NCBI RefSeq assembly: GCF_032854445.1
Contig: NC_088302.1
Coordinates: 310,001-374,000 of the forward strand
Origin: Liolophura sinensis
Lineage: Eukaryota; Mollusca; Polyplacophora; Chitonida; Chitonidae
Direction of reading: 5' to 3'
DNA length: 64,000 nt
Shown here in pieces: positions 21,226-62,307 of the stretch (its first letter is position 1; each line of letters begins with the position of its first letter). A program made the translations under genes and the position numbers. The notes beneath the pieces are model-generated. The model had not been told where the DNA came from. It worked only from the letters and a program-made list of their open reading frames with translations, and ran no database searches.

Positions 21226-22035
21226 TTTTTTTCATTTATGGCATAGATTTTGTTCAGTCTATATTATTAGCGTTATTCAATGCAATTCTGTCCAGTGGTC
21301 ATTTCCTGTTTCTAAGTGACTTTCAGTAGATTTTCTTTCAATCCTATTTAAACGTTGTTCCTAAATTTAGATCGATACAAACACGATTACGTGTCCCATC
21401 GATTACATCGTCCCATCGATAACAAGTGGAGATGGGTAGGTAGCACAAGCCACCTCAGAAAATAGAAAACGTGTTCTATGTAATATACTGGAGAATGAGT
21501 TTCATTTTATTTTTGTTTGCACAGTGTTCACTAATTTGCTTAAACAGTATATTCTACTTTTTTGTTGGAAATATGCATCACTGGCAGAAACTGGTTGCAT
21601 TACTGACAGAAATTCCAAATGTGTAATTAGAAGTTTCAATATTTTTATTTTCAAATCGTTTAAGCTAAGAGATGAACTGTTATATGGTAATGTATACCAG
21701 CTGTAACACACCGCCTGAACTGTTATATGGTAATGTATACCAGCTGTAACACACCTCCATACATGATGTCTGTTGTCTGTTGTCTGAATTTCGATGGATC
21801 AATTGGTATTGTACAATAAAGTATTTATGTACCTATATCCATTTTTTTTTACTTTTTGTGCTAAAAGCAATGCCAAATAAATATAGATCATTCGTTGAAC
21901 TTTATTTCTTATATAGGGCAAAGCACCTGAATCCAGTACGTGAAGTCGCCTGTTGAAGACGTGTTGAATAGCTGTTTACCAGTTGAAGACTTGTTAAATT
22001 AGCTCTTGGAGAAAGCAATTGGAGAGAAGTCGACC

Positions 22036-25000
22036 ATGAAGCTGATTGTGCTGGGGATCTTGGCAATGGTAGCTGCTGCAAGCTGTAAGTTTTTCTTGAT
22101 TAATTTTATAACGAAAATACCTGCATAAAATCAAAATCAAAAAACATAACTGTTCGACTGTCCACCCAGTGTGTCAGGTATTTGCCATTTGAGACTGATA
22201 AAACATGTGACGTCGCGTACCAGTTTTGGGCTGGGACTGGCATACAGTGATAAAACATGTGACGTCGCGTACCAGTTTTGGGCTGGGACTGGCATACAGT
22301 GATAAAACATGTGACGTCGCGTACCAGTTTTGGGCTGGGACTGGCATACAGTGATAAAACATGTGACGTCGTGTATCAGTTTTGGGCTGGGACTGGCATA
22401 CAGTGATAAAACATGTGACGTCGTGTATCAGTTTTGGGCTGGGACTGGCATACAGTGATAAAACATGTGACGTCGTGTATCAGTTTTGGGCTGGGACTGG
22501 CATACAGTGATAAAACATGTGACGTCGTGTATCAGTTTTGGGCTGGGACTGGCATACAGTGATAAAACATGTGACGTCGTGTATCAGTTTTGGGCTGGGA
22601 CTGGCATACAGTGATAAAACATGTGACGTCGTGTATCAGTTTTGGGCTGGGACTGGCATACAGTGATAAAACATGTGACGTCGTGTATCAGTTTTGGGCT
22701 GGGACTGACAAACAGTCATGCATAACAACTTATTAACCTGATAAGTGACTCACAGCACAGAGAGTAAAACAACAGCCGTCACGACAGTTTGATAGCTGGC
22801 AAATGATCACACGTAACCGGTGAAATACGGCTACAGCATAGAGAGTAAAACACGAGCAGTGACGACAGTGTGATAGTTGGCTAATGATCACGGTTAGAGT
22901 TTTAATCTCATTGTTAATGTAAATGCTTAAATAGTAGCAAAGTACTCCTTAGATAGATACGCTGTATCGGGATGAGAAATTTTTGGCAGCAAAATAGTGC
23001 TCCTTTCAATCTCTTTCACTGAGCACGGAAATTTGCCCATTTTGACATAAGTCACTTATGTACTTTTCTCGACGCTCTATTAGGCCACGTGATGCTTCAA
23101 AAGCAGCCCACAATTGTTGTGTGGCTGACGTAGCATAGCAAACATTAATCCAATCTTTATCAAACATCAAGCATAAACCCAATCTTTATCAACTACCAAC
23201 CACTGATTCAGTCCTTATCAAATACCAAGCATAAACCCAATCTTTATCAACTACCAAGCACTGATTCAGTCTTTATCAAACATCAAGCATAAACCCAATC
23301 TTTATCAAATACCAACCACTGATTCAGTCCTTATCAAATACCAAGCATAAACCCAATCTTTATCAACTACCAAGCACTGATTCAGTCTTTATCAAACATC
23401 AAGCATAAACCCAATCTTTATCAACTACCAACCACTGATTCAGTCCTTATCAAATACCAAGAATTAATCCAGTCTTTATCAAATACCAAGCACTGATTCA
23501 GTCTTGCCAAGCATTAATTACTTCGATGATAGATCAGTTTATTAATTATTACTTTTTCTTCTAAGTGAATAGACCATAAATCTAGAATAGCGAGGCGAAT
23601 GACAGGTCAATCAGCTGTATGGCATCTGTCTGTAGTCCAGTATGCCATGAACAATGAAGTGTAGGATAGCGAAGCAGTTAGCAGATCAGTCAGCCTTATG
23701 GTATCTGTTTGTAGTTCAGTATGCCATGAACAATGAAGTGTAGGATAGCGAAGCAGTTAGCAGATCAGTCAGCCTTATGGTATCTGTTTGTAGTTCAGTA
23801 TGCCATGAACAATGAAGTGTAGGATAGCGAAGCAGTTAGCAGATCAGTCAGCCGTATGGTATCTGTTTGTAGTTCAGTATGCCATGAACAATGAAGTGTA
23901 GGATAGTGAGGCAATTAGCAGATCAGTCAGCCGTATAGTCTCTGCCTGTAATCCAGTATGCCATGAACAGTGAGGTGCAGGATAGTGAAGCAATTAGCAG
24001 ATCAGTCAACTGTATGGTCTCTGCCTGTAGTTCAGTATGCCATGAACGGTGAGGTCACAAGTTCCTTTCCAGCTTCTATTCGATAAGATAAGGCTTTCAT
24101 TGAAGAGACAACTAAATACTGATGCAATACAATGAACATTGCTTTTCACTCTCGCTTAGCGATGTTTTCTTCATTTAATCAATGAATAAAGTAAACAAAT
24201 AATTAAAACACTATATTTGAAAAAAATCTTTGCTTCGTATTGCAAAACAAATTCCCTGTTTAGAAATAGATAATGACTTAATACAATACATTAAATTTTT
24301 TCAGGCCTGCCTCTTCAACAACACATCCCCTCCAAAACAAAAAGAACAGCTGAATATGTTGTTCGTTCTAAAACAAAGAGAGATGTTGAATTCGACCTTC
24401 CTTCCAAAACCAAGAGAGATGTTGAGTTCAAACTTCCCTCCAAGACCAAGAGAGATGCTGAGTTCGACCTTCCATCAAAAACCAAGAGAGATGCTGATTT
24501 AGAGCTCCCTTCCAAAACCAAGAGAGAAGCCCTTCCGTCCAAAACCAAAAGGGCAGCCCTACCATCCCAAACAAAGAGAGATGCTGAGTTCGAATTTCCC
24601 TCCAAAACCAAGAGAGAAGCCCTTCCTTCTAAAACTAGGAGAGATGCTGAGATCGACATTCCATCCAAAACGAAGAGAGATGTTCAGTTCGAATTTCCCT
24701 CCAAAACCAAGAGAGACGCTCTTCCTTCACAAACCAAGAGAGATGCTGAGATCGAACTTCCCTCCAAAACAAAGAGAGATGCTGAGTTCGAACTTCCATC
24801 AAAAACCAAGAGAGATGCTGATTTAGAGCTCCCTTCCAAAACCAAGAGAGAAGCCCTTCCTTCCAAAACCAAGAGAGATGTTGAGTTTGAATTACCCTCC
24901 AAAACCAAGAGAGAAGCCCTTCCTTCCAAAACCAAGAGAGATGCTGAGATCAACTTTCCTTCCAAAACAAAGAGAAATGCTGAGATAGGCCTTCCCTCTA

Positions 25001-28000
25001 AAACCAAGAGAGAAGCCCTTCCTTCCAAAACTAAGAGAGATGCTGAGTTCGAGCTTCCCTCCAAAACAAAGAGAGAAGCACTGCCCTCCAAGACCAAGAG
25101 AGATGCTGATTTCGAATTACCCTCCAAAACCAAGAGAGAAGCACTTCCCTCCAAGACCAAGAGAGAAGCAGTTCCGTCCAAGACCAAGAGAGAAGCTGAT
25201 TTCGAACTACCCTCTAAAACTAAAAGAGATGCCAATTTCGAATTACCCTCTAAAACCAAGAGAGATGCTGAGATCGACCTTCCATCTAAAACCAAGAGAG
25301 ATGCTGATTTTGACCTTCCATCCAAAACCAAAAGAGCTACCCTGCCTTCCAAAACAAAGAGAGATGCTGAGCTAGAGCTTCCTTCCAAAACCAAGAGAGA
25401 GGCCCTTCCTTCCAAAACCAAAAGGGAAGCCCTACCATCTAAAACCAAGAGAGATGCTGAGATCGACCTTCCATCCAAAACTAAGAGAGGTGTTGATTTC
25501 GAGCTTCCCTCCAAAACCAAAAGGGAAGCCCTGTCTTCCAAAACTAGGAGAGATGCTGAGCTAGAGCTTCCTTCCAAGACCAAGAGAGAAGCCCTTCCTT
25601 CCAAAACCAAAAGGGCAGCCATACCGTCCCAAACGAAGAGAGATGCTGAGTTCGAACTTCCCTCCAAAACCAAGAGAGAAGCCCTTCCCTCCAAAACCAA
25701 GAGAGATGCTGAGATCGACCTTCCATCCAAAACTAAGAGAGATGCTGATTTAGAGCTTCCATCCAAAACCAAAAGGGCAGCTCTACCATCCCAAACGAAG
25801 AGAGATGCAGAGATAGAGCTTCCTTCCAAAACCAAGAGAGAAGCCCTTCCATCCAAAACCAAGAGAGATGCTGAGATTGACCTTCCATCCAAAACGAAGA
25901 GAGATGCTGAGTTCGAATTTCCCTCCAAAACCAAGAGAGAAGCCTTTCCTTCCAAAACCAAGAGAGATGCTGAGATCGACCTTCCATCCAAAACTAAGAG
26001 AGATGCTGATTTAGAGCTTCCATCCAAAACCAAAAGGGCAGCTCTACCATCCCAAACGAAGAGAGATGCAGAGATAGAGCTTCCATCTAAAACCAAGAGA
26101 GAAGCCCTTCCATCCAAAACCAAGAGAGATGCTGAGATTGACCTTCCATCCAAAACTAAGAGAGATGCTGAGTTCGAATTTCCCTCCAAAACCAAGAGAG
26201 AAGCCTTTCCTTCCAAAACCAAGAGAGATGCTGAGATCGACCTTCCATCCAAAACTAAGAGAGATGCTGATTTAGAGCTTCCATCCAAAACCAAAAGGGC
26301 AGCTCTACCATCCCAAACGAAGAGAGATGCAGAGATAGAGCTTCCTTCTAAAACCAAGAGAGAAACCCTTCCTTCCAAAACCAAAAGGGCAGCCCTACCG
26401 TCCCAAACGAAGAGAGATGCTGAGTTCGAACTTCCCTCCAAAACCAAGAGAGATGCTGAGATCGACCTTCCATCCAAAACTAAGAGAGATGCTGATTTAG
26501 AGCTTCCATCCAAAACCAAAAGGGCAACTCTACCATCCCAAACGAAGAGAGATGCAGAGATAGAGCTTCCTTCTAAAACCAAGAGAGAAGCTCTTCCCTC
26601 CAAAACCAAGAGAGATGCTGAGATCGACCTTCCATCCAAAACAAAGAGAGATGCTGATTTAGAGCTTCCATCCAAAACCAAAAGGGCAACTCTACCATCC
26701 CAAACGAAGAGAGATGCAGAGATCGAGCTTCCTTCTAAAACCAAGAGAGAAACCCTTCCTTCCAAAACCAAAAGGTCAGCCCTACCGTCCCAAACGAAGA
26801 GAGATGCTGAGTTCGAACTTCCCTCCAAAACCAAGAGAGATGCTGAGATCGACCTTCCATCCAAAACTAAGAGAGATGCTGATTTAGAGCTTCCATCCAA
26901 AACCAAAAGGGCAGCTCTGCCATCCCAAACGAAGAGAGATGCAGAGATAGAGCTTCCTTCTAAAACCAAGAGAGAAGCCCTTCCCTCCAAAACCAAGAGA
27001 GATACTGAGATTGACCTTCCATCCAAAACAAAGAGAGATGCTGAGTTCGAATTTCCCTCCAAAACCAAGAGAGAAGCCCTTCCCTCCAAAACCAAGAGAG
27101 ATGCTGAGATTGACCTTCCATCCAAAACTAAGAGAGATGCTGATTTAGAGCTTCCATCCAAAACCAAAAGGGCAGCTCTACCATCCCAAACGAAGAGAGA
27201 TGCAGAGATAGAGCTTCCTTCTAAAACCAAGAGAGAAGCCCTTCCATCCAAAACCAAGAGAGATGCTGAGATCGACCTTCCATCCAAAACTAAGAGAGAT
27301 GCTGAGTTCGAACTTCCCTCCAAAACCAAGAGAGATGCTGAGATCGACCTTCCATCCAAAACCAAGAGAGATGCTGATTTAGAGCTTCCATCCAAAACCA
27401 AAAGGGAAGCCCTGTCTTCCAAAACTAGAAGAGATGCTGGGCTAGAGCTTCCTTCCAAGACCAAGAGAGAAGCCCTTCCCTCCAAAACCAAAAGGGCAGC
27501 CCTACCGTCCCAAACGAAGAGAGATGCTGAGTTCGAATTTCCCTCCAAAACCAAGAGAGATGCTGAGATCGACCTTCCATCCAAAACTAAGAGAGGTGCT
27601 GATTTAGAGCTTCCATCCAAAACCAAAAGGGCAGCTCTACCATCCCAAACGAAGAGAGATGCAGAGATAGAGCTTCCTTCTAAAACCAAGAGAGAAGCCC
27701 TTCCCTCCAAAACCAAGAGAGATGCTGAGATCGACCTTCCATCCAAAACGAAGAGAGATGTTGATTTAGAGCTTCCATCCAAAACCAAAAGGTCAGCTCT
27801 ACCATCCCAAACGAAGAGAGATGCAGAGATAGAGCTTCCTTCTAAAACCAAGAGAGAAGCCCTTCCTTCCAAAACCAAAAGAGATGCTGAGATCGACCTT
27901 CCATCCAAAACTAAGAGAGATGCTGATTTAGAGCTTCCATCCAAAACCAAAAGGGCAGCTCTACCATCCCAAACGAAGAGAGATGCAGAGATAGAGCTTC

Positions 28001-29220
28001 CTTCTAAAACCAAGAGAGAAGCCCTTCCTTCCAAAACCAAGAGAGATGCTGAGATCGACCTTCCATCCAAAACAAAGAGAGATGTTGATTTAGAGCTTCC
28101 TTCCAAAATCAAAAGGGCAGCTCTACCATCCCAAACGAAGAGAGATGCAGAGATAGAGCTTCCTTCTAAAACCAAGAGAGAAGCCCTTCCTTCCAAAACC
28201 AGGAGAGATGCTGAGCTAGAGCTTCCTTCCAAAACCAAGAGAGAGGCCCTTCCTTCCAAAACCAAAAGGGAAGCCCTATCATCCCAAACGAAGAGAGATG
28301 CAGAGATCGAGCTTCCTTCTAAAACGAAGAGAGATGCTGAGATCGACCTTCCATCCAAAACTAAGAGAGGTGCTGATTTCGAGCTTCCCTCCAAGACCAA
28401 AAGGGAAGCCCTGCCTTCCAAAACTAGGAGAGATGCTGAGCTAGAGCTTCCTTCCAAGACCAAGAGAGAAGCCCTTCCATCCAAAACCAAAAGGTCAGCC
28501 CTACCGTCCCAAACGAAGAGAGATGCTGAGTTCGAATTTCCCTCCAAAACCAAGAGAGAAGCCCTTCCCTCCAAAACCAAGAGAGATGCTGAGATCGACC
28601 TTCCATCCAAAACTAAGAGAGATGCTGATTTAGAGCTTCCATCCAAAACCAAAAGGGCAGCTCTACCATCCCAAACGAAGAGAGATGCAGAGATAGAGCT
28701 TCCTTCTAAAACCAAGAGAGAAGCCCTTCCCTCCAAAACCAAGAGAGATGCTGAGATTGACCTTCCATCCAAAACGAAGAGAGATGCTGAGTTCGAATTT
28801 CCCTCCAAAACCAAGAGAGAAGCCTTTCCTTCCAAAACCAAAAGAGATGCTGAGATCGACCTTCCATCCAAAACTAAGAGAGATGCTGATTTTGAGCTTC
28901 CATCCAAAACCAAAAGGGCAGCTCTACCATCCCAAACGAAGAGAGATGCTGAGATAAGCATTCCCTCTAAGACCAAAAGAGAAGCTGATTCAGAGCTTCC
29001 TTCTAAAACCAAAAGGGAAGCCCTTCCTTCCCAAACAAAGAGAGATGCTAAGTTCAAACTTCCCTCCAAAACCAAGAGAGAAGCACTTCCTTCCAAGACC
29101 AAGAGAGATGCTGATTTCGAGCTACCCTCCAAATCCAAGAGAGAAGCACTTCCCTCCAAGACCAAGAGAGATGCTGATTTTGAGCTACCCTCGAAAACTA
29201 AAAGAGATGCCAATTTTTAA
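22036..29220 (+). CDS. secreted multi-peptide precursor with about 150 dibasic sites
   Basis: Two coding exons: 22036-22084 and 24305-29220. Exon one has a good start context (A at -3) and encodes MKLIVLGILAMVAAAS, a signal peptide; the donor is T then GTAAGT. The acceptor tttttcag restores TGC (Cys). From 24307 the frame is open for 1637 codons to TAA at 29218; I translated every line and found no stop or frameshift. After LPLQQHI the protein is only units ending KR or RR: long ones (DAEIDLPSKTKR, DADLELPSKTKR, DAEFEFPSKTKR) and short ones (EALPSKTKR, AALPSQTKR). Prohormone-convertase or furin-like cleavage at K-T-K-R would release about 150 peptides ending SKT or SQT; none has Gly before KR, so no amidation is expected. 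Beyond the signal peptide there is no Met and almost no Cys. This resembles neuropeptide or other secreted polyprotein precursors, but I do not recognise the family. A secreted disordered matrix protein is the alternative. Confidence 0.82.
22190..22715 (+). repeat. 52-bp array with a CRE-like core, about 10 copies
   Basis: Units contain tgataaaacatgtgacgtcg and cagttttgggctgggactgg. Each copy carries TGACGTCG, one base from the cAMP response element TGACGTCA. The first copies read gtcgcgtacc and the later ones gtcgtgtatc, so two subtypes expanded in turn. It lies 100 bp after the signal-peptide exon, in the second intron of the precursor gene. Confidence 0.92.
23150..23512 (+). repeat. array, about 58-60-bp unit, 6 copies
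   Basis: Units alternate caagcataaacccaatcttt with accactgattcagtccttat and atcaaataccaa. Intronic in the precursor gene. Confidence 0.85.
23595..24055 (+). repeat. array, about 79-bp unit, 6 copies
   Basis: Units contain cagtatgccatgaacaatga, agtgtaggatagcgaagcag and ttagcagatcagtcagcc. It ends 250 bp before the acceptor of the long coding exon. Confidence 0.88.
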
Positions 29221-29268
29221 TTACCCTCTAAAACCAAGAGAGAAGCCCTTCCTTCCAAAACTATGTGA
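24335..29268 (+). repeat. coding tandem array of 27- and 36-bp units
   Basis: This is the repeat that makes up the long exon of the peptide precursor. Units are 27 bp (9 codons) or 36 bp (12 codons), all multiples of 3. From about 25740 to 28750 five units recur in fixed order as a 162-bp block: EIDL, DLEL, AALPSQT, EIEL, EALPSKT types, with at least twelve partial or complete repeats of the DLEL-ALPSQT/TLPSQT-EIEL core. The first and last kilobase are more diverse. The array continues for two units past the stop codon. The opposite strand is open for 1509 codons (24684-29213) only because of this period. Confidence 0.95.
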
Positions 29269-29673: not shown

Positions 29674-29679
29674 AATAAA
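29674..29679 (+). terminator. polyadenylation signal AATAAA
   Basis: AATAAA at 29674 follows the precursor stop codon by about 450 bp, with T/G-rich sequence downstream. The interval 29221-29673 is AT-rich, non-repetitive after 29270, and fits a 3' untranslated region. Confidence 0.5.
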
Positions 29680-37591: not shown

Positions 37592-40500
37592 TCAATCGGC
37601 CGCACAGTAATGAAGCAGAGAACTGTATTCGTCCACATCTACTTCCTCTTGGTCGCTCAGAATATGCACTGTGTTGTTCCTGTTGAAGTCCATCTCAACG
37701 ACTACCCCATGGTGATTTGCGTCTGACTGTTCCTCCGATATGCTATCACCCGAGACAGGTGTTCCGAAACCCCGTGACACAGCCTTGCCACACACAACGT
37801 CGCCGTGACAGAAAAACGCTTTAATTTCTTCACTGGTTATGACTACAGTTCCTGTATCCACAACACTTCCACTACAGTTTCTGTTCTGTTGCGCAGAAAC
37901 TGGAATAACTCCTCCTCGTAGAGAGTACTTGTGATACTCGTTACACAGCCGTTTGGTATTGTCATCCCGATGGCAACCCGAACTGTTCTCTGTTAAAGCG
38001 ACAAAACTTTGACTCCCCAGCTCATAGGAAACTAGGGATGCGTCAGCGGTAGACTGTTGTGGGACATCGTCAGAAGACGGCATGCTAGTGGCACAACTGC
38101 CATTACTGTTATCGTGTTTAGGTACATCTTCACGTGGTGGCTGGTCAACAGAACCAAGCGCGGCAATATTCTCGCATCCAGCCGTTTTTATGGCACTATT
38201 CCTATCTACATGGCCACAGACTGACTTCGGAATAGCATATCGTTCAGCTTCACCTTCACACAGAGGTTTATGAACGTAGTTCGAGGAAGTGTCCGAATCT
38301 ACTGAGTAGCGGACTGAGCATCCTTCCAGTTTGCCAAACGTCTCTTCTGACAGAGCATTTCTGTGGAGACAGCCTTGCTCCCGGCTGCTTCCGGCGTTAT
38401 TGAACCTGGGCAGGCTGGCCTTCTCAGGCAAGAGTGGGGTACTGAGGTCCACTGGGCGCTCATCATTCATCAAACAGCTATTAACAGAGGACAGACTTAG
38501 TTTTCTCTCTGGACCTGGTGATAAACAAGCCTCAGGTGTGTCAACAGGTAAGACCGAGGTTTCGCTGTTTGATATAGCTGTCCGTGCCGGATTGTTGGAT
38601 GTCGTGTCAGCGTGTACCGTGACAGGAGACGCACCAAGTCGCGGTTTCCTCATCTTCAAAGACACGGTCTCTGACCAGAGGCTATTATTGTTGCTCTGCT
38701 CCCCACCAGGTGCTGGCAGGGCGGTGCCGTCTTCAGATATGTTCGGGAAAGTTCCAGGCCCATATGTTGGAAAGTCTTTCCAGTCCTCGCCAAAAATTTT
38801 ATTTACTTTTGAAATATAATCTTTGTTTCCTGCTGCAGGATTCTGAAAGATCCAAGGCGAAAAGAAATAATTGACACATTAAATGGATTTCCAAACAGAA
38901 CATCATGTTTTGTTATTGAAAAGAACTTTTATCTGAAGTTTGTTTATTTGTTATTATTCTTGGAGGCTATCACATTTCGGTCATGTTATCCTTGTAACAG
39001 ACCGGTCTCAAACAACAAATAGTGCTGCTTCACTGGAACGCCTTGATGACAACACCATATCGCGACTCACTCAGCCACAGTAAACAGTGTCTTAACTCAC
39101 GTGTAGGGTATTGACGACGGACTAACTTTTTAAATTACGTCGGTTTCTAGAAGCACGTCTCAAATCTTGCCGGCCGGCGGGAGGAACTACTACAATCTAT
39201 CAAAGGATTAGATTTGGACAAGAAAGAGAAGTCTTCAGTGAGAAAATTAACAACATACGCGTTGACGTATACGGTTACGCATGCACACATTTCCCTGGTT
39301 CAGTTTCTGTAGCGGGTGACTAAAAAAATGCATGATGGTTTGGGCGACGCTTATCACGGCGTCTCTGGTCTACATTTGCCGTCATATTTCCATGGCCGCA
39401 ACCGGGGTTACCTCACCTCCACAGTAGGCGCAAAAAGTATCACCTGTCGAGGGCGTGGATTTGTTTCAAGAAAGGATGATGTAGTTGTGACTTAAGGCAG
39501 ACATAAACCTAAGACCTTGGTTCATGTAAGTGTCCTATGATAAACAGACACCCGAGCCCCTGTCACCTTTTTCAGATCAGACAGGGCGTTTTTATGAGTA
39601 AGTGTCCTATGCGAAACAGGCACCTGAACCCCTGTTACCTTCTTCAGATTAGACAGGGCTATGTCTAAGACCTTGGTACATGTAACTGTACTATGAGAAA
39701 CAGACACCTGAGCCCCTGTCACCTTTTTCAGATCAGACAGGGCGTTTTTATGAGTAAGTGTCCTGTGAAAAAGAGATACCTGAGGCCCTGTTACCTTCTT
39801 CAGATCTGACAGCCCTTAGCCTAAGACCTTGGTACATGTAAGTGTCCTATGCGAAACAGACACCTGAGCCCCTGTTACCTTCTTCAGATCAGACAGGGCT
39901 ATGTCTAAGACCTTGGTACATGTAACTGTACTATGAGAAACAGACACCTGAGCCCCTGTCACCTTCTTCAGATCAGACAGGGCGTTTTTTATGAGAAAGT
40001 GTTCTATGAAAAAGAGGCACCTGAGGCCCTATTACCTTCTTCAAATCTGACAGCCCTTAGTCTAAGACCTTGGTACATGTAAGTGTCCTATGCGTAACAG
40101 ACACCTGAGCCCCTGTCACCTTTTTCAGATCAGACAGGGCGTTTTTATGAGTAAGTGTCCTATGAAAAAGAGACATCTGAGGCCCTGTTACCTTCTCCAG
40201 ATCAGACGGGCCTTAGCCTAAGACCTTGGTACATGTAAGTGTCCTATGATAAACAGACACCGGAGGCCCTGTTACTTTCTTCAGATCAGACGGGCCTTAG
40301 CCTAAGACCTTGGTACATGTAAGTGTCCTATGAGAAACAAACACCTATGCCCGAGTTACCTTCTTCAGATCAGACAGGGCGTTTTTACGGCTTATCTCTT
40401 TCTTTGTATTTCCCTTATTGCCGTTCTTGTTCCCTTTCTCCTGAAAATATAAAACAGATGTCAAATTGATCATTATTTAAGTTTGCAGTGGTTCTCTGTC

Positions 40501-56435: not shown

Positions 56436-59400
56436 CTACTTGGCATGTTTCTTGTACACTGCCTCCACATCTTCCACATCTTCCTTTGAGCCCAGGAATA
56501 TGGGTGAGCGCTGGTGAATTTCTGTAGGTTGTAGGTCTAGGATAGGGGAGGTACCCGTGCTGGCCTTCCCTCCTGCCTGCTCCATTACGTACGCCATGGG
56601 GTTACACTCGTACAGAAGACGCAACTGCCAACAAAAGGTAACACCATAAAGTCATGTGAGTCTCTATCAGGGAAGACAGCTACCTACAAAAGGTAACACC
56701 ATAAAGTCATGTGGGTATCTATCTGGGGAGACAGCTACCTACAAAAGGTAACACCATAAAGTCATGTGGGTATCTATCTGGGGAGACAGCTACCTACAAA
56801 AGGTAACACCATAAAGTCATGTGGGTATCTATCTGGGGAGACAGCTACCTACACAAGGTAACACCATAAAGTCATGTGGGTACCTATCTGGGGAGACAGC
56901 TACCTACAAAAGGTAACACCATAAAGCTACGTGAGTATTTGTCAGGGGACATAACTGCCAACAAAACACCGTAAAGCTATGTGAGTATCTGTCAGGGGAC
57001 AAAACCGGAACAAAACACCATAAAACTATGTGAGTATCTGTCAGGGGACAAAACTGCCAACAAAACACCATAAAGCTATGTGAGTATCTGTCAGGGGACA
57101 TAACAGCCAACAAAACACCATAAAGCTATGCGAGTATCTGTCAGGGGACATAACTGCCAACAAAACACCATAACACTATGTGAGTATCTGTCAGGGGACA
57201 TAACAGCCAACAAAACAGCATAAAGCTATACGAGTATGTCAGGGGACATAACCGCAACAAAACACCAGAAAACTATGTGAGCATATGTCAGGGGACATAA
57301 CTGCCAAAAAACACCATAAAGCTATGCAAAGTACCTGTCAGGGGACATAATTGCGAACAACACACCATAAAGCTATATGAGTATCTATCAGGGGACATAA
57401 CTGCAACAAAACACAATAAAACTATGTGAGCATGTGTCAGGGGACAAAACTACCAACAAAACACCATAAAGCTATGCGAGTATCTGTCAGGGGACATAAC
57501 TGCCAACAAAACACCATAAAGCTATGTGAGTATCTGTCAGGGGATTTGATTTTAAAAATTGGAAACTATTGTAATATGCATTACATAAAAAAAGAAGTCA
57601 CATGAACAATTTATCCTGTACACACGTAAGTTCAAAAATACAAAATGGTCTGCTGAAACACGGGATGTTCATTATTAGGTCTATTCCCCCTTCACACAAT
57701 TCATACAGCACAGTGTCTCAATTTGTCTAAGACCAGCCGTCTTGCAGTGGTTGTTGACCCTTGGAGAAAACAGTGAGTTCCCATCCACTGCCCTCTGCCC
57801 ATTAGAAACATCCTGGCTGCTTCCTTGACTTTTCCAGGACAGTTGAATGCAGTGTTGACTTCCCAGCCCACAAGGCTAAGCTCCAAGGCCACATGCTGAC
57901 CTCAGAACCTGGTGGATTTAAGATGTCTGACAGCATATCCTCATTTTCCCAACAACAAACACAACAAATGCAGCCTGTAGACGCTGTATGTGCATGTTTA
58001 AATAATCTTTTGTTTAAAGGCAGTAATAGCAACTGCAGCATTTGTTGGATGTTTTGTTACAAAATGCTTGGCTTCAATGTGTCCACGCCTATTTCACTCT
58101 TCCACGCCTATTTCACTCTTCCTCTCTGAAGTGAAGTTTCGGTTCACTTTTGCTCTTCTTTCCAAATTGGGGTTGGCAGACTTCCTGATGACGCCCTTTC
58201 TGATACTTCTGTCCATGCTAGGTCCTACCAACTGCTTTCAAATAAAAATAGTTTTTATAAAATCCACTCTTTGCTTATGGGAACATTTGCAAACCATCTC
58301 ATCCCAAGAAACTGAAAGAAATAAAATTCAAAGCAGAAGCAATTTACTCCGCATGTAAACATACCTTTCCCTTCGGGGACTGAGTTGTGGCAGGGTACAT
58401 AAAGATTCCCCCATACATCAGAGTTCTATGCACATCAGCCACCATTGAGCCTATGTAACGTCCTCCGTACGGCTTACCTGACTGCAAAGTAACAAGAAAA
58501 TCATTCACAACAATCACTGTTTCCTGGCTGGCCCTCTGTACAGTTTAAATACTGACTGCAAAGTTAAAATCAGGAAGAAAAATCTTCACCAAATTACTGA
58601 TGTCTGAATTATAACAGGCTTTTCGATAATTACTTTGCACAAACAGTTTGTTTAAAGGGAAACATTTCAAGTCGTTGACTCACCAGAATACATGTACAAT
58701 GTATGTCACAAATCTTTATAATCTACTACATGCTTACCTCTGGGAATTTCTTGCTTTTCACATACTCTTTTGTTGCCTCATCCCAGTACTGCTCATAACC
58801 TTCATTCAGAGAGTAGATCTTGCCACGGGGCTTTATTTTTATATTTTTTTCTGTTAATATAAACTCTCCAATTGCCTGCAAAGAAAACATGCAATGTGTC
58901 ACATGTATCAATACAATAGGCAACAAACCATTAAAAAAATACATTAACCTTGTCAATCCTTATAGACCCCTTGCATGCCCTAAAGGACCCCTTGTATTCC
59001 CTTAAAGACCACTTGCATTCCCTTATGTACTCTTTGCATGTCTTTAGGAACCCCTAGCACTCCACAATCCCCAAGCACACCACAATCCTCAAGCACACCA
59101 CAAACCCCTAGCACACTGCAAACCCCCTAGCAAACCACAATCCCTCTAGCAAACAACAATCCCTCTAGCACACCACAATCCCCTAGCACACCAAAAACCC
59201 CTGGCACACCACAAACCCCTGGCACACCACAATCCCCAGGCACACCACAAACCCCTATCACACCACAAAAACCCTAGCACACCACAAACCCCCTAGCAAA
59301 CCACAATCCCTCTAGCAAACAACAATCCCTCTAGCACACCACAATCCCCTAGCACACCACAATCCTCAAGCACACTGCAAACCCCAAGCACACCGCAAAC

Positions 59401-62005
59401 CCCTACCACCACTAGCACACCACAATCCCCAGGCACACCAAAAACCCCTGGCACACCACAAACCCCTGGCACACCACAATCCCCAGGCACACCACAAACC
59501 CCTATCAACACCACAAAAACCCTAGCACACCACAAACCCCCTAGCACACCACAATCCCTCTAGCAAACAACAATCCCTCTTGCACACCACAATCCCCTAG
59601 CACACCACAATCCTCAAGCAAACCGAAACAGACGTTCGTATACCAGCCGTAAACCAAGTTGGACATTCCACGTAAATAATCGCAAGGCTAATTCCAAAAA
59701 TGAAGTTTAACACAAACCAGAATGAAGAAAGTATATACACTCAACAAAAATACATAACGTACAAACCAAAAATGCTATTTTAAAATGAGCTTTCATCAAA
59801 CAATTATTTGTATACTGATTGATTTGTTTTCTCACATCAAGGGGCCTAACTTTAACTGACCACTCCCAGAGGATTTACTCACAGGTTGGATTATTCATGT
59901 TGGGCAGCATGAAGGATGATAATGTGGTGGTTAGTCAGTATGACCACTACATGGACACTCCTTACACTGGGACGCTATAACGGGCATCCAAAAGTGTGGA
60001 CCTTTGCCACTTGTCAACATACCACAGATGTCCCAATTCCTGAAGGAGCATGTCACTGCCCTGCTCAATGCAAAAATGTCAGCAACAACAGTGGCAGCAC
60101 AACTAAATGTGAGTCATTCCACCATCAGTCGCTTAAGAACACGTTTCCTAGAGACTGGGAGCACTGTAAACCACCCACGTAAACCACCCACATGCAAACG
60201 GCTGGAGGGAGGGTGGCCCCCCCAGTCGGCCAAACCCACCGAGGTCTCGACTTGACGACAGCCCGTCTGGCCACCATAATCCCCCAACAGGTAGCACATT
60301 GAACTGGGACGTTCTGTGTGACCACCTGTTCCAGTACCAGAGAATCTCCGCCAGCTGCGTGTGGAAGTTCAGGAGGAATGGGACAATATCCCACAGGCCA
60401 CCACTGACAATTTGCGGAACATGTCTATGTGCAGAAGATGTACTGCTCTTTGTGATGCTAGTGGTGGACACAATCAGCATGGAGTCCTGTGAACTGTGAC
60501 TACCGACCAATCTTTTCACGCTGCCATAGCTCATGAATTATTGCCCTAAAATGTGAAAACCTGATGGAAACTGAAGCCACCATCAATAAAGAATTCTTAC
60601 CCTATAAAGTATTGAACTAATAGGTCAATTATGAATGAGAGAAAACAGCATTAAACATGATTCATGCGTTATATTTGTCGACTTATACACTCAACAAAAA
60701 TATGACAGAATCATGCAAAGAGTAGCAGTCAACAATTTTCAATGATACTGAAAAGATGCAAGGTATGTATGAGAAACTAGTATTTAAATCATGTACCATT
60801 CTAGGATAAAAGTTATTGATAATAAATTATGTATTTCAGTTTGCCGTGTTTGCAACTGTTCACATATCCAACATCTCAATCCAATTAAACACGATGAATA
60901 TAGAATTCCTAGCCCAGGTTAAGTAGAATTAGACACAATCATGAAGCAGAACCTTGGAGATTCTGGATGCTCTGTCCACTTTTATTATACTCATTGTAAA
61001 ACTGAAGAAACTCACAGTGAAAGGTATTTGATAGGATAACCTTCAGACTCTAGTCTTTGCAGAAATAACTTGTGACAATTGACTAGAACAGTCACATAAC
61101 ACACGCAGGATCCATGTAAATGTAACTGTCCAAGTAAGGATAGTGTCAAAATTCAAACTATCCCTCTTGTCATAAGGTAAGGAACCCCTGCTCTATTAAG
61201 AACCCCTTGCACACCACTAGGAACCCTTTGCACACAATCAGAAACCCTTAGCACCCACTTAGAAATCCCTTGCACACAATTTCTATACGAAGTACTCACA
61301 GGATCTAACATGAACCCTTGAACGCCATTGCCCACGGAGAGAACCACCATTGTAGCACTTCCATAGAGAGCATATCCTGCTGCCACTGTGTTCCTGCCAG
61401 GCTGGAGAGCATCCTTGACGGTAGGGGGTCCCTCAGTTGTCTGTAATAAATCACAAACATAGCTCAGTCAGGCAACAAAATCAGCAGGTGAGAACCAGGT
61501 ATCATACCTAAACTTTGATCGACTTAATCCACATTTCTGGCTTCCTTTCTGGATGTATGCAGGAAGGCCTGTCAGCAACTTTGCAAGGCTTCCTTCTACC
61601 ATAAGCTGGCTGCCGTCTAACAAGTAAAATATTCAACAAGTAATATATAGTACGGAGTTCACCACCAATCAAATAAATAAAAAATTTCACATTCATTGCA
61701 GGTGCTTTCTTCAATGTAACTTTAACTTACAGCCAGGGTCAAGTTTTTGAGGAAACAATGACGAGGAAACAATGACAAGAAAAATTTAGAGTTTTTGTTA
61801 CAAAGGCATTTCAAATAAGGCATAGATCTCTCTTCACCAAATTAAGGGTGCACAATCTATAACTAACAGGAAAGCCTGCTTTTACAGAGTGTCAGTAATC
61901 TGTCCATCTTACCTTCCTATAAATGCCAAAGATGGAACCGATGGAAACGAGACAATCAATATTTGAGGAACCATCCAATGGGTCAAAGCACACAATGTAT
62001 TTTCC
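56436..62005 (-). CDS. FBP1: fructose-1,6-bisphosphatase, C-terminal 225 residues
   Basis: Cytosolic gluconeogenic enzyme that hydrolyses fructose 1,6-bisphosphate to fructose 6-phosphate. Five exons (high to low): 62005-61913, 61440-61300, 58875-58738, 58481-58365 and 56624-56436, all phase 0 with GT-AG borders. In order they encode the metal-binding motif [11 protein letters not shown] with [10 protein letters not shown], then [16 protein letters not shown] and FMLDP, then [14 protein letters not shown] with [10 protein letters not shown], then [19 protein letters not shown], and last [19 protein letters not shown] ending KKHAK and TAG. These match the substrate-site segments of the animal enzyme almost residue for residue. 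Animal FBPases are near 335 aa, so about 110 N-terminal residues, including the AMP site, should lie right of the window; I do not see them in 62006-64000. The introns hold a deleted Tc1-like element, a SINE fragment and several arrays, one at the last acceptor. No frame breaks: probably functional. Confidence 0.95.
56625..57545 (-). repeat. 55-bp then 50-bp array at the last FBP1 acceptor
   Basis: Nearest the exon are about 5.5 copies of a 55-bp unit (plus sense: acctacaaaaggtaacacca and taaagtcatgtgggtatct), then about 12 copies of a 50-bp unit (aactgccaacaaaacaccat and aaagctatgtgagtatctgt). On the minus strand the second unit reads ttttgttggcagtt, identical to the genuine acceptor before LRLLYE. 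Confidence 0.92.
58960..59640 (+). repeat. array of about 18-19-bp units
   Basis: Units such as ccctagcacaccacaaaccc and tcctcaagcacaccacaa. A block of about 250 bp is duplicated: compare 59100-59330 with 59340-59590. It is intronic, about 85 bp from the exon ending at 58875. Confidence 0.87.
59733..60688 (+). mobile_element. internally deleted Tc1/mariner-like element
   Basis: The left terminus is tatacactcaacaaaaatac. The N-terminal helix-turn-helix is clear: [20 protein letters not shown] then [19 protein letters not shown] and [12 protein letters not shown] frameshifted [16 protein letters not shown] follows. The sequence then jumps to the C-terminal part: [20 protein letters not shown] and [15 protein letters not shown]. 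The catalytic centre (most of DDE) is missing, so a deletion of several hundred bases is inferred. The right terminus is degenerate (atatttgtcgacttata). Immediately after it a second ttatacactcaacaaaaata starts at 60683 in the same orientation. It lies in an FBP1 intron. Confidence 0.8.
61165..61292 (+). repeat. short array, about 30-bp unit, 4 copies
   Basis: Units such as gaaccccttgcacaccacta and ggaaccctttgcacacaatc. On the minus strand it starts about 10-20 bp after the donor at 61299. Confidence 0.75.
61535..61690 (+). mobile_element. diverged SINE fragment, plus orientation
   Basis: Recognisable pieces are gcaggaaggcctgtcagcaa, ctaccataagctggctgccg and the tail caccaatcaaataaataaa. It is the most diverged copy here and lies in an FBP1 intron. 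Confidence 0.65.
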
Positions 62006-62307
62006 CTGAAAACAGATGAGGAGTAGAGTTCAATGGCTGCACAGCACTATCCATGCACACAATCCTATCATTCTCACGGTAGAGACACAGCTACGCTCAT
62101 CAGCTGATCACAAATAGAAGATTCACAGTAAACATTAGAAAAACTGCCTAATAGACATGTGCATATAGTTAAAAATAAGGCTTGAAAATTGAAAACCATT
62201 GCATGAAATATGTAATGTACTGGTTACACATATGCAAGCTTGAATGAATGATAAGGCTTTTAAGTAGCAGTACTGTGCTGTACAGACACTGAGCACTGCT
62301 TATTTGT

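What the first reader, a model, noticed from the sequence alone, without database searches (positions are those of the whole stretch)
22036..29220. A 1.65-kaa secreted polyprotein with about 150 Lys-Arg sites and no Met in its long exon
Seen: a signal-peptide exon, a phase-matched GT-AG intron, and 1637 consecutive sense codons built only of 9- and 12-residue units ending KTKR, QTKR or KTRR. Known: metazoan peptide precursors combine a signal peptide with repeated peptides separated by KR cleavage sites, but usually release tens of peptides and often amidate them through a Gly before KR. Here about 150 copies occur and none has that Gly. Inference: it yields swarms of short acidic-then-basic peptides ending SKT or SQT, or is a secreted disordered matrix that is partly processed. 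I know no described family with this unit.
Basis: partly seen in the sequence, partly recalled or inferred. Interest (0 to 1): 0.95.

Follow-up and report, generated by a model that had tools for sequence, protein, structure and literature searches.

The report
Giant repeated-peptide precursor gene in chitons
A chiton gene appears to encode one long secreted protein made of about 150 near-identical short segments, each ending in the cut mark that animals use to release small peptides; the sequence evolves like a real gene, but what the peptides do is unknown.

Summary
Exon 1 (22036-22084, MKLIVLGILAMVAAAS), a GT-AG phase-1 intron and exon 2 (24305-29220) give 1654 aa with 150 complete units (60 of 9 aa, 90 of 12 aa), each ending [KR]R, none with Gly before it. 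The genome is the chiton Liolophura sinensis. Tandem arrays, this one included, fill 42.8% of the window and others are open by chance, so length proves nothing; the substitution pattern does: plus-frame omega 0.16 and 0.21, against 0.74-1.36 in a C11 control array. The signal exon is the most hydrophobic of 80 candidates. Partial searches found no second such array in the genome and no relative among proteins. Best reading: a secreted multi-copy precursor cut at KR into non-amidated 7- and 10-mers ending LPSKT or LPSQT, three times the 50 copies called 'impressive' in a coral precursor (PMC7523074). Transcription, cleavage and function are untested; an uncut charged matrix protein is the main rival.

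The parts
21910..21915 (+). TATA-box-like site, about 125 bases upstream of the ATG
   Evidence: TATATA found at 21910; consensus match only, transcription start not shown
22036..22084 (+). exon 1: start codon, signal peptide MKLIVLGILAMVAAAS and first base of a Cys codon
   Evidence: most hydrophobic of 80 ATG+donor candidate exons in the window
22085..24304 (+). phase-1 GT-AG intron containing minisatellites (52, 58/29 and 79 bp periods)
   Evidence: splicing itself not shown
24305..29220 (+). exon 2 coding part: 13-aa first segment, 150 units of 9 or 12 aa each ending [KR]R, 4-aa remnant, stop TAA
   Evidence: purifying selection
29221..29268 (+). in-frame remnant after the stop (LPSKTKREALPSKTM then TGA), probably the older C-terminus
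29674..29679 (+). AATAAA polyadenylation-like signal
   Evidence: consensus match only

Best explanation
A real protein-coding gene of the chiton Liolophura sinensis for a secreted, tandemly repeated peptide precursor. The signal peptide sends it into the secretory pathway; proprotein-convertase-type enzymes cut after each [KR]R; a carboxypeptidase removes the basic pair; about 150 short, non-amidated peptides result, mainly EALPSKT (29), DAEIDLPSKT (21), DAEIELPSKT (14), AALPSQT (13) and DADLELPSKT (12) (counts), nearly all sharing a core [LFIV]PS[KQ]T. The array grows and is homogenised by in-frame duplication of blocks in its middle, under selection on the protein. Shown: the frame, the units, synonymous bias in the plus frame. 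Inferred: transcription, splicing, cleavage, trimming, signalling role.
For: Signal exon in phase with exon 2, the most hydrophobic of 80 candidates (13 plus, 67 minus strand, many of the latter from one repeat array), 3.21 against 1.65 for the next. Plus-frame pN/pS 0.175 and 0.212; codon-model omega 0.159 and 0.211, against 1.049, 0.739, 1.364 in three frames of the C11 control array. Single-step edges of minimum spanning trees: 26 synonymous, 15 nonsynonymous, 0 stop, expected about 11.6 and 29.4, binomial P 3e-6. Last residue Arg 150 of 150; preceding residue K 145, R 5; their third bases vary only synonymously, while Thr and Pro codons use all four third bases. P1' is D85, E41, A17, G3, S3, T1, N1 and P2' A138, V7, T6 of 151. 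73 of 73 exact internal repeats of 60 bases or more are offset by a multiple of 9.
Against: No transcript, peptide or cleavage evidence was available. No relative, no amidation signal. The reverse frame -1 also shows reduced ratios (0.396/0.362; omega 0.267/0.458; 20 synonymous of 41 edges, P 0.018): weaker, and explicable as the shadow of plus-frame third positions. Pairwise ratios are noisy in short units: 6 of 10 other arrays in the window have some frame at or below 0.33. Copies are not independent (concerted evolution), so P values are rough. A stop has entered near the end. No NCBI protein of this species matched in the length ranges searched.
Confidence: 0.6

Rival explanations
1. A secreted, mostly uncut disordered polyampholyte (matrix, mucus, egg-hull or radula component): acidic then basic blocks in each unit carry the function, and KR is only part of the charge pattern.
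For: Charge alternation visible in the units, pI 9.98, net +139; no amidation, no homologue found; chiton radular matrix protein RTMP1 is a secreted repetitive, partly disordered protein (PMC6351634, passages).
Against: Arg is never replaced by Lys at the last position (0 of 150), while Lys is replaced by Arg before it (5 of 150); a pure charge pattern would tolerate both. These five may be only one or two events.
Confidence: 0.27
2. A sub-case of the best reading: KR cleavage followed by stepwise N-terminal trimming to the Pro-protected core, so that nearly all units converge on one pentapeptide, LPSKT/LPSQT/FPSKT.
For: Variation in length and sequence lies mostly before the core; core [LFIV]PS[KQ]T in 145 of 151 segments; leaders EA 37, DAEID 22, AA 14 and others. 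Acidic leaders and X-Pro protection are described for cnidarian and placozoan precursors (PMC7523074 and PMC9545775, passages).
Against: [quoted passage not shown] In the 10-mers a dipeptidyl peptidase of X-Ala/X-Pro type (specificity recalled) would remove DA but leave three residues before the core.
Confidence: 0.12
3. An ordinary non-coding minisatellite whose 27- and 36-bp units happen to be open.
For: 47 tandem arrays, this one included, cover 42.8% of the window; C11:487-493 kb holds an array open over 1405, 1333 and 975 aa in three frames; the opposite strand here is open for 1510 aa; best-of-six-frame ratios of 0.27-0.33 occur in 6 of 10 other window arrays.
Against: Strongest bias is in the plus frame, the one the signal exon enters, in both unit classes, and below all 57 ratios obtained from 60 control frames; the lowest control frame, 0.27, holds stops, and the lowest stop-free one, 0.33, rests on 7 units. 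The C11 array shows 0.74-1.36.
Confidence: 0.04
4. A formerly working gene now decaying.
For: A stop interrupts the final unit; no NCBI L. sinensis protein matched in the length ranges searched, though at least one such protein is in the database.
Against: The stop removes only the last 15 residues; no other stop or frameshift in 1637 codons.
Confidence: 0.05

Closest known systems
Metazoan multi-copy neuropeptide / peptide-hormone precursors with dibasic sites (mollusc FCAP, pedal peptide, FMRFamide, APGWamide)
   Same: Signal peptide, short repeated peptides bounded by dibasic sites; non-amidated members exist (pedal peptide, PMC4200219 passages).
   Different: About 150 copies against up to 28 for molluscan FCAP (PMC6425005 passages); no amidation; no peptide or transcript shown. 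No sequence comparison with these precursors was run beyond the database searches.
Cnidarian GPRGamide and Antho-RFamide preprohormones
   Same: Very high copy number (50 GPRGamide copies in Stylophora pistillata, PMC7523074 passages); acidic residues before the peptide, as in Antho-RFamide (PMC9545775 passages).
   Different: Those are amidated through Gly; here none; different phylum and peptide.
Fungal Kex2-processed repeat proteins (KEPs)
   Different: Animal genome; cyclising enzymes not looked for; [quoted passage not shown]
Chiton radular teeth matrix protein RTMP1
   Same: Chiton, secreted, repetitive, partly disordered (PMC6351634 passages).
   Different: RTMP1 is 539 aa, Gly/Ser-rich with W/F- and H-rich regions; here G 6, H 1 and no W in 1654 aa.

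Membership tests
Multi-copy dibasic peptide precursor (neuropeptide-like) | N-terminal signal peptide | tested here: met
   (hydrophobicity and phase only; no signal-peptide predictor available)
Multi-copy dibasic peptide precursor (neuropeptide-like) | Repeated short peptides bounded by conserved dibasic sites | tested here: met
   151 [KR]R sites, 150 of 150 complete units end in [KR]R
Multi-copy dibasic peptide precursor (neuropeptide-like) | C-terminal amidation Gly (frequent, not obligatory) | tested here: not met
   residue before the basic pair is Thr in 148 of 150, Ile in one, Ser in one
Multi-copy dibasic peptide precursor (neuropeptide-like) | Cleavage in vivo and release of peptides; neural or endocrine expression | not testable with these tools
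   no RNA or peptide data
Known protein families (Pfam, NCBIfam, PDB) | Sequence match to a family model or solved chain | tested here: not met
   Pfam 0 at E up to 1; NCBIfam one match far under its cut-off, 37.9 against 141 bits; PDB 0 for the first 300 aa of exon 2
Fungal KEP | Fungal origin with signal peptide and Kex2-separated repeats | tested here: not met
   architecture met, but the genome is a chiton
Non-coding minisatellite | No codon-position bias in any frame | tested here: not met
Chiton matrix protein (RTMP1) | Gly/Ser-rich repeats with W/F- and H-rich regions | tested here: not met
   composition; definition from PMC6351634 passages

The most novel reading that the evidence does not exclude
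A chiton signalling system in which a single mRNA yields about 150 peptides that are trimmed past their acidic leaders to one Pro-protected, non-amidated pentapeptide (LPSKT or LPSQT): a bilaterian using the acidic-leader style of N-terminal processing described for Cnidaria and Placozoa, with a copy number above any in the passages I read.
Probability: 0.12. Interest if true: 0.85.

Novelty: new variant of a known kind. Interest (0 to 1): 0.62.

Why it matters
If cleaved, it would have about three times the copy number of the highest precursor in the passages read here (50, PMC7523074), in a molluscan class for which a 2019 survey said systematic studies of peptide signalling were still lacking (PMC6425005, passage). 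It is also a natural test of how minisatellite growth and protein selection interact: the window is full of tandem arrays, several open by chance, and this one, unlike those compared, evolves as protein. If uncut, it is an unusual repeating acidic-basic biomaterial.

Tried and rejected
Protein searches with exon 2 (1637 aa) and the first 402 aa of the spliced protein: the first gave one hit, 22% identity to a bacterial Ig-like protein, rejected as composition; the second none at E up to 10. Their length limits leave under about 221, about 704-899 and over about 2865 residues unsearched, only 8000 candidates were scored each time, and correction for biased composition may hide relatives (inference). 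Viral contigs: 6 pattern matches, none confirmed. Literature searches: PSKTKR 0 papers; LPSKT 7, by their listed titles unrelated; Liolophura with neuropeptide 0; Polyplacophora with neuropeptide precursor and chiton 2 listed, not read; two broader searches gave 0 and 1, the one not read. Own-genome protein search with 200 aa: 117 matches, 18 on this locus and 99 elsewhere, best of those E 2.6e-11; only 150 of 382 candidates were scored. Of the 99, 15 lie whole (one more in part) in the five loci I looked at, L037, L039, L040, L041, L042: minisatellite frames without a KR series. Against that: L039 has one 128-aa frame with 15 RR pairs (SHTRRP repeats), but frames beside it are open too (178 and 138 aa) and its codon-position diversity, 0.043/0.117/0.097 over 21 units, shows no third-position excess. 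The other 83 places were not inspected. Pattern for PSKTKR in the genome: 264 matches, control 218; 122 of the 264 lie in this exon or its remnant after the stop, leaving 142, under the control; the list of places was cut within C8, so later contigs were not seen place by place. 244 kb around the gene: no other [SP]K[TS][KR]R match; two other frames with 5 or more KR, both unlike the finding. Pfam weak matches to Bflower_2 and ALTTAQ in repeat regions taken as chance. Pfam was run on parts of the window only: three minus frames and two plus frames of about 29.3-42.4 kb, three minus frames of about 49.6-63.0 kb, and seven open frames. Searches for convertase (PF01483) and dipeptidyl peptidase (PF00930) genes, for copies of the promoter region and for copies of the 3' end did not complete. 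The codon-model script printed no omega, recovered from its logs; kappa stayed at 1.0, units with a stop in the frame tested were dropped (36 and 47 unique units in the plus frame, all kept; C11 45, 46, 42), and one off-frame run with 3 rows was left out. No structure was predicted.
Full report
WHERE IT IS. The window carries fructose-bisphosphatase exons on the minus strand between about 56.4 and 62.0 kb; 225 residues typed from them are 100% identical over the whole query to a protein of Liolophura sinensis, on a contig of 58,388,612 bases. The genome holding the window has 609,464,459 bases in 632 contigs, the window being C8:310001-374000, and C8 is 58,388,612 bases long. That matches the ~609 Mb assembly published as L. 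japonica (PMC11068029, passages) and renamed L. sinensis (PMC12441733, whole text). It is a chiton. The window lies near one end of that contig.

WHAT IS THERE. ATG at 22036, signal exon MKLIVLGILAMVAAAS, donor GTAAGT after 22084, acceptor ending at 24304, phase 1, then 1637 sense codons and TAA at 29218-29220: 1654 aa spliced. A TATA-like site lies at 21910 and AATAAA at 29674. After a 13-aa first segment come 60 units of 9 aa and 90 of 12 aa. Commonest units: EALPSKTKR 26, DAEIDLPSKTKR 21, DAEIELPSKTKR 14, AALPSQTKR 13, DADLELPSKTKR 12. The frame goes on for 15 sense codons after the stop to a TGA.

IS IT A GENE. Length is not proof: 47 tandem arrays cover 42.8% of the window, 4882 of their 27374 bases being this exon and its remnant; the opposite strand is open for 1510 aa; and an array on C11 is open for 1405, 1333 and 975 aa in three frames. 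The pattern of change is the test. Mean column diversity over 63 unit columns is 0.098, 0.048 and 0.372 at codon positions 1, 2, 3; 0 of 20000 permutations reach it. pN/pS in the plus frame is 0.175 and 0.212; the other plus frames are 1.3-9.9 and the reverse frames 0.36-3.5. The same ratio is noisy in short units: in ten other window arrays with period divisible by three, 57 of 60 frames gave a ratio (three had no synonymous change), and 6 of the 10 arrays have some frame at 0.27-0.33; the lowest, 0.27, holds stops, the lowest stop-free one is 0.33 from 7 units, and none reaches the two values here. Counting only single-step edges between unique units: 26 synonymous, 15 nonsynonymous, 0 stop, against about 11.6 and 29.4 expected, P 3e-6; reverse frame -1, the next best, has 20 of 41, P 0.018. 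Codon-model omega is 0.159 and 0.211 here, 0.267 and 0.458 in reverse frame -1, 1.514-11.572 in the other plus frames run, and 1.049, 0.739 and 1.364 in three frames of the C11 array (kappa 1.0). In pairwise form the C11 units give 0.79-4.34 on that strand and 0.6-2.47 on the other. Copies share history through duplication, so P values are rough, but these tests point one way. The signal exon has the highest hydrophobic stretch of 80 ATG-plus-donor candidates of 12-30 codons on both strands, 3.21 against 1.65.

HOW IT EVOLVES. 73 exact internal repeats of at least 60 bases, longest 188, are all offset by multiples of 9 bases; units in the middle have near-identical partners (means of 0.1-0.5 differences for units 41-120), the ends are older (1.2-2.6 for units 1-40, 2.2 for 141-150). 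So blocks seem to duplicate in frame in the middle.

HOW IT MOST LIKELY WORKS. The last residue of each unit is Arg in 150 of 150 (AGA 125, AGG 25), the one before it Lys 145 or Arg 5. Convertases need Arg at P1 and accept Lys or Arg at P2 (recalled), so this asymmetry favours cleavage over mere charge, though the five Lys-to-Arg units may be only one or two events. The residue after the cut is D85, E41, A17, G3, S3, T1, N1, then A138, V7, T6; KR-EA and RR-DA are the cuts of yeast alpha-factor and human proalbumin (recalled). Trimming the basic pair leaves mostly 7- and 10-mers with a shared end: [LFIV]PS[KQ]T in 145 of 151. No Gly precedes the pair, so no amidation. Whether acidic leaders are trimmed to the Pro-protected core is open; that style is described for Cnidaria and Placozoa and said to be absent in Bilateria (PMC7523074, PMC9545775, passages). 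All of cleavage, trimming and role are inference; the searches for processing-enzyme genes did not complete.

RELATIVES. No family match, no relative in two protein searches with stated gaps in length range, although at least one NCBI protein of this species is in the database. In the genome, exon 1 with the start of the intron matches only itself; the protein search gives 18 matches on the locus and 99 elsewhere, 150 of 382 candidates scored; the 15 whole places looked at, in five loci, are minisatellite frames without a KR series, one with RR pairs but no third-position excess. The DNA pattern for PSKTKR gives 264 matches against 218 for its control; 122 are in this exon or its remnant. So a second array of this exact motif is unlikely, and a diverged one is not excluded.

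COMPARED WITH THE KNOWN. It looks like a multi-copy dibasic precursor. Molluscan FCAP precursors reach 28 copies (PMC6425005, passages), and 50 GPRGamide copies in a coral were called impressive (PMC7523074, passages). Fungal Kex2-processed repeat proteins share the architecture (PMC7329392, passages). Membership in the neuropeptide class cannot be tested without expression and peptide data. I found no description of this unit in the searches named in Tried and rejected; that library omits most subscription papers.

VERDICT. In all likelihood a real chiton gene, undescribed as far as these searches reach; probably a hugely amplified secreted peptide precursor; possibly an uncut polyampholyte matrix.

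Noticed in passing
about 56439-62014, minus strand: Fructose-1,6-bisphosphatase exons, identical to a Liolophura sinensis protein; used to name the organism. Exons further upstream were not located.
   Followed up: partly
37592-38878, minus strand: A 428-aa open frame of ordinary composition with no Pfam match and no significant PDB match (best E 0.17); perhaps the last exon of an unidentified gene.
   Followed up: partly
1-64000: 47 tandem arrays with many different periods cover 42.8% of the window, which lies near one end of a 58.4-Mb contig.
   Followed up: partly
L040 1-6000 (C11:487001-493000): A minisatellite with units near 33-36 bp, open over 1405, 1333 and 975 aa in three frames with no sign of selection: long open frames in arrays occur here and need a substitution test.
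   Followed up: yes
L042 from 276, plus strand (C1): A 780-aa open frame of repeats around DDLSDKYLSLSSRDTGESFPSLTH; not tested for selection.
   Followed up: no
L039 1489-1872, plus strand (C6): A short array read as SHTRRP repeats with 15 RR pairs in 128 aa; other frames open too and no third-position excess.
   Followed up: partly
22085-24304: The gene's intron contains three minisatellites (52, 58/29 and 79 bp periods).
   Followed up: no
L005 from about 6455, plus strand (C8:256455): A 162-aa open frame with 10 KR sites in repeats like RPHAKRRSTRPYEKRRR; basic and unlike the finding.
   Followed up: no
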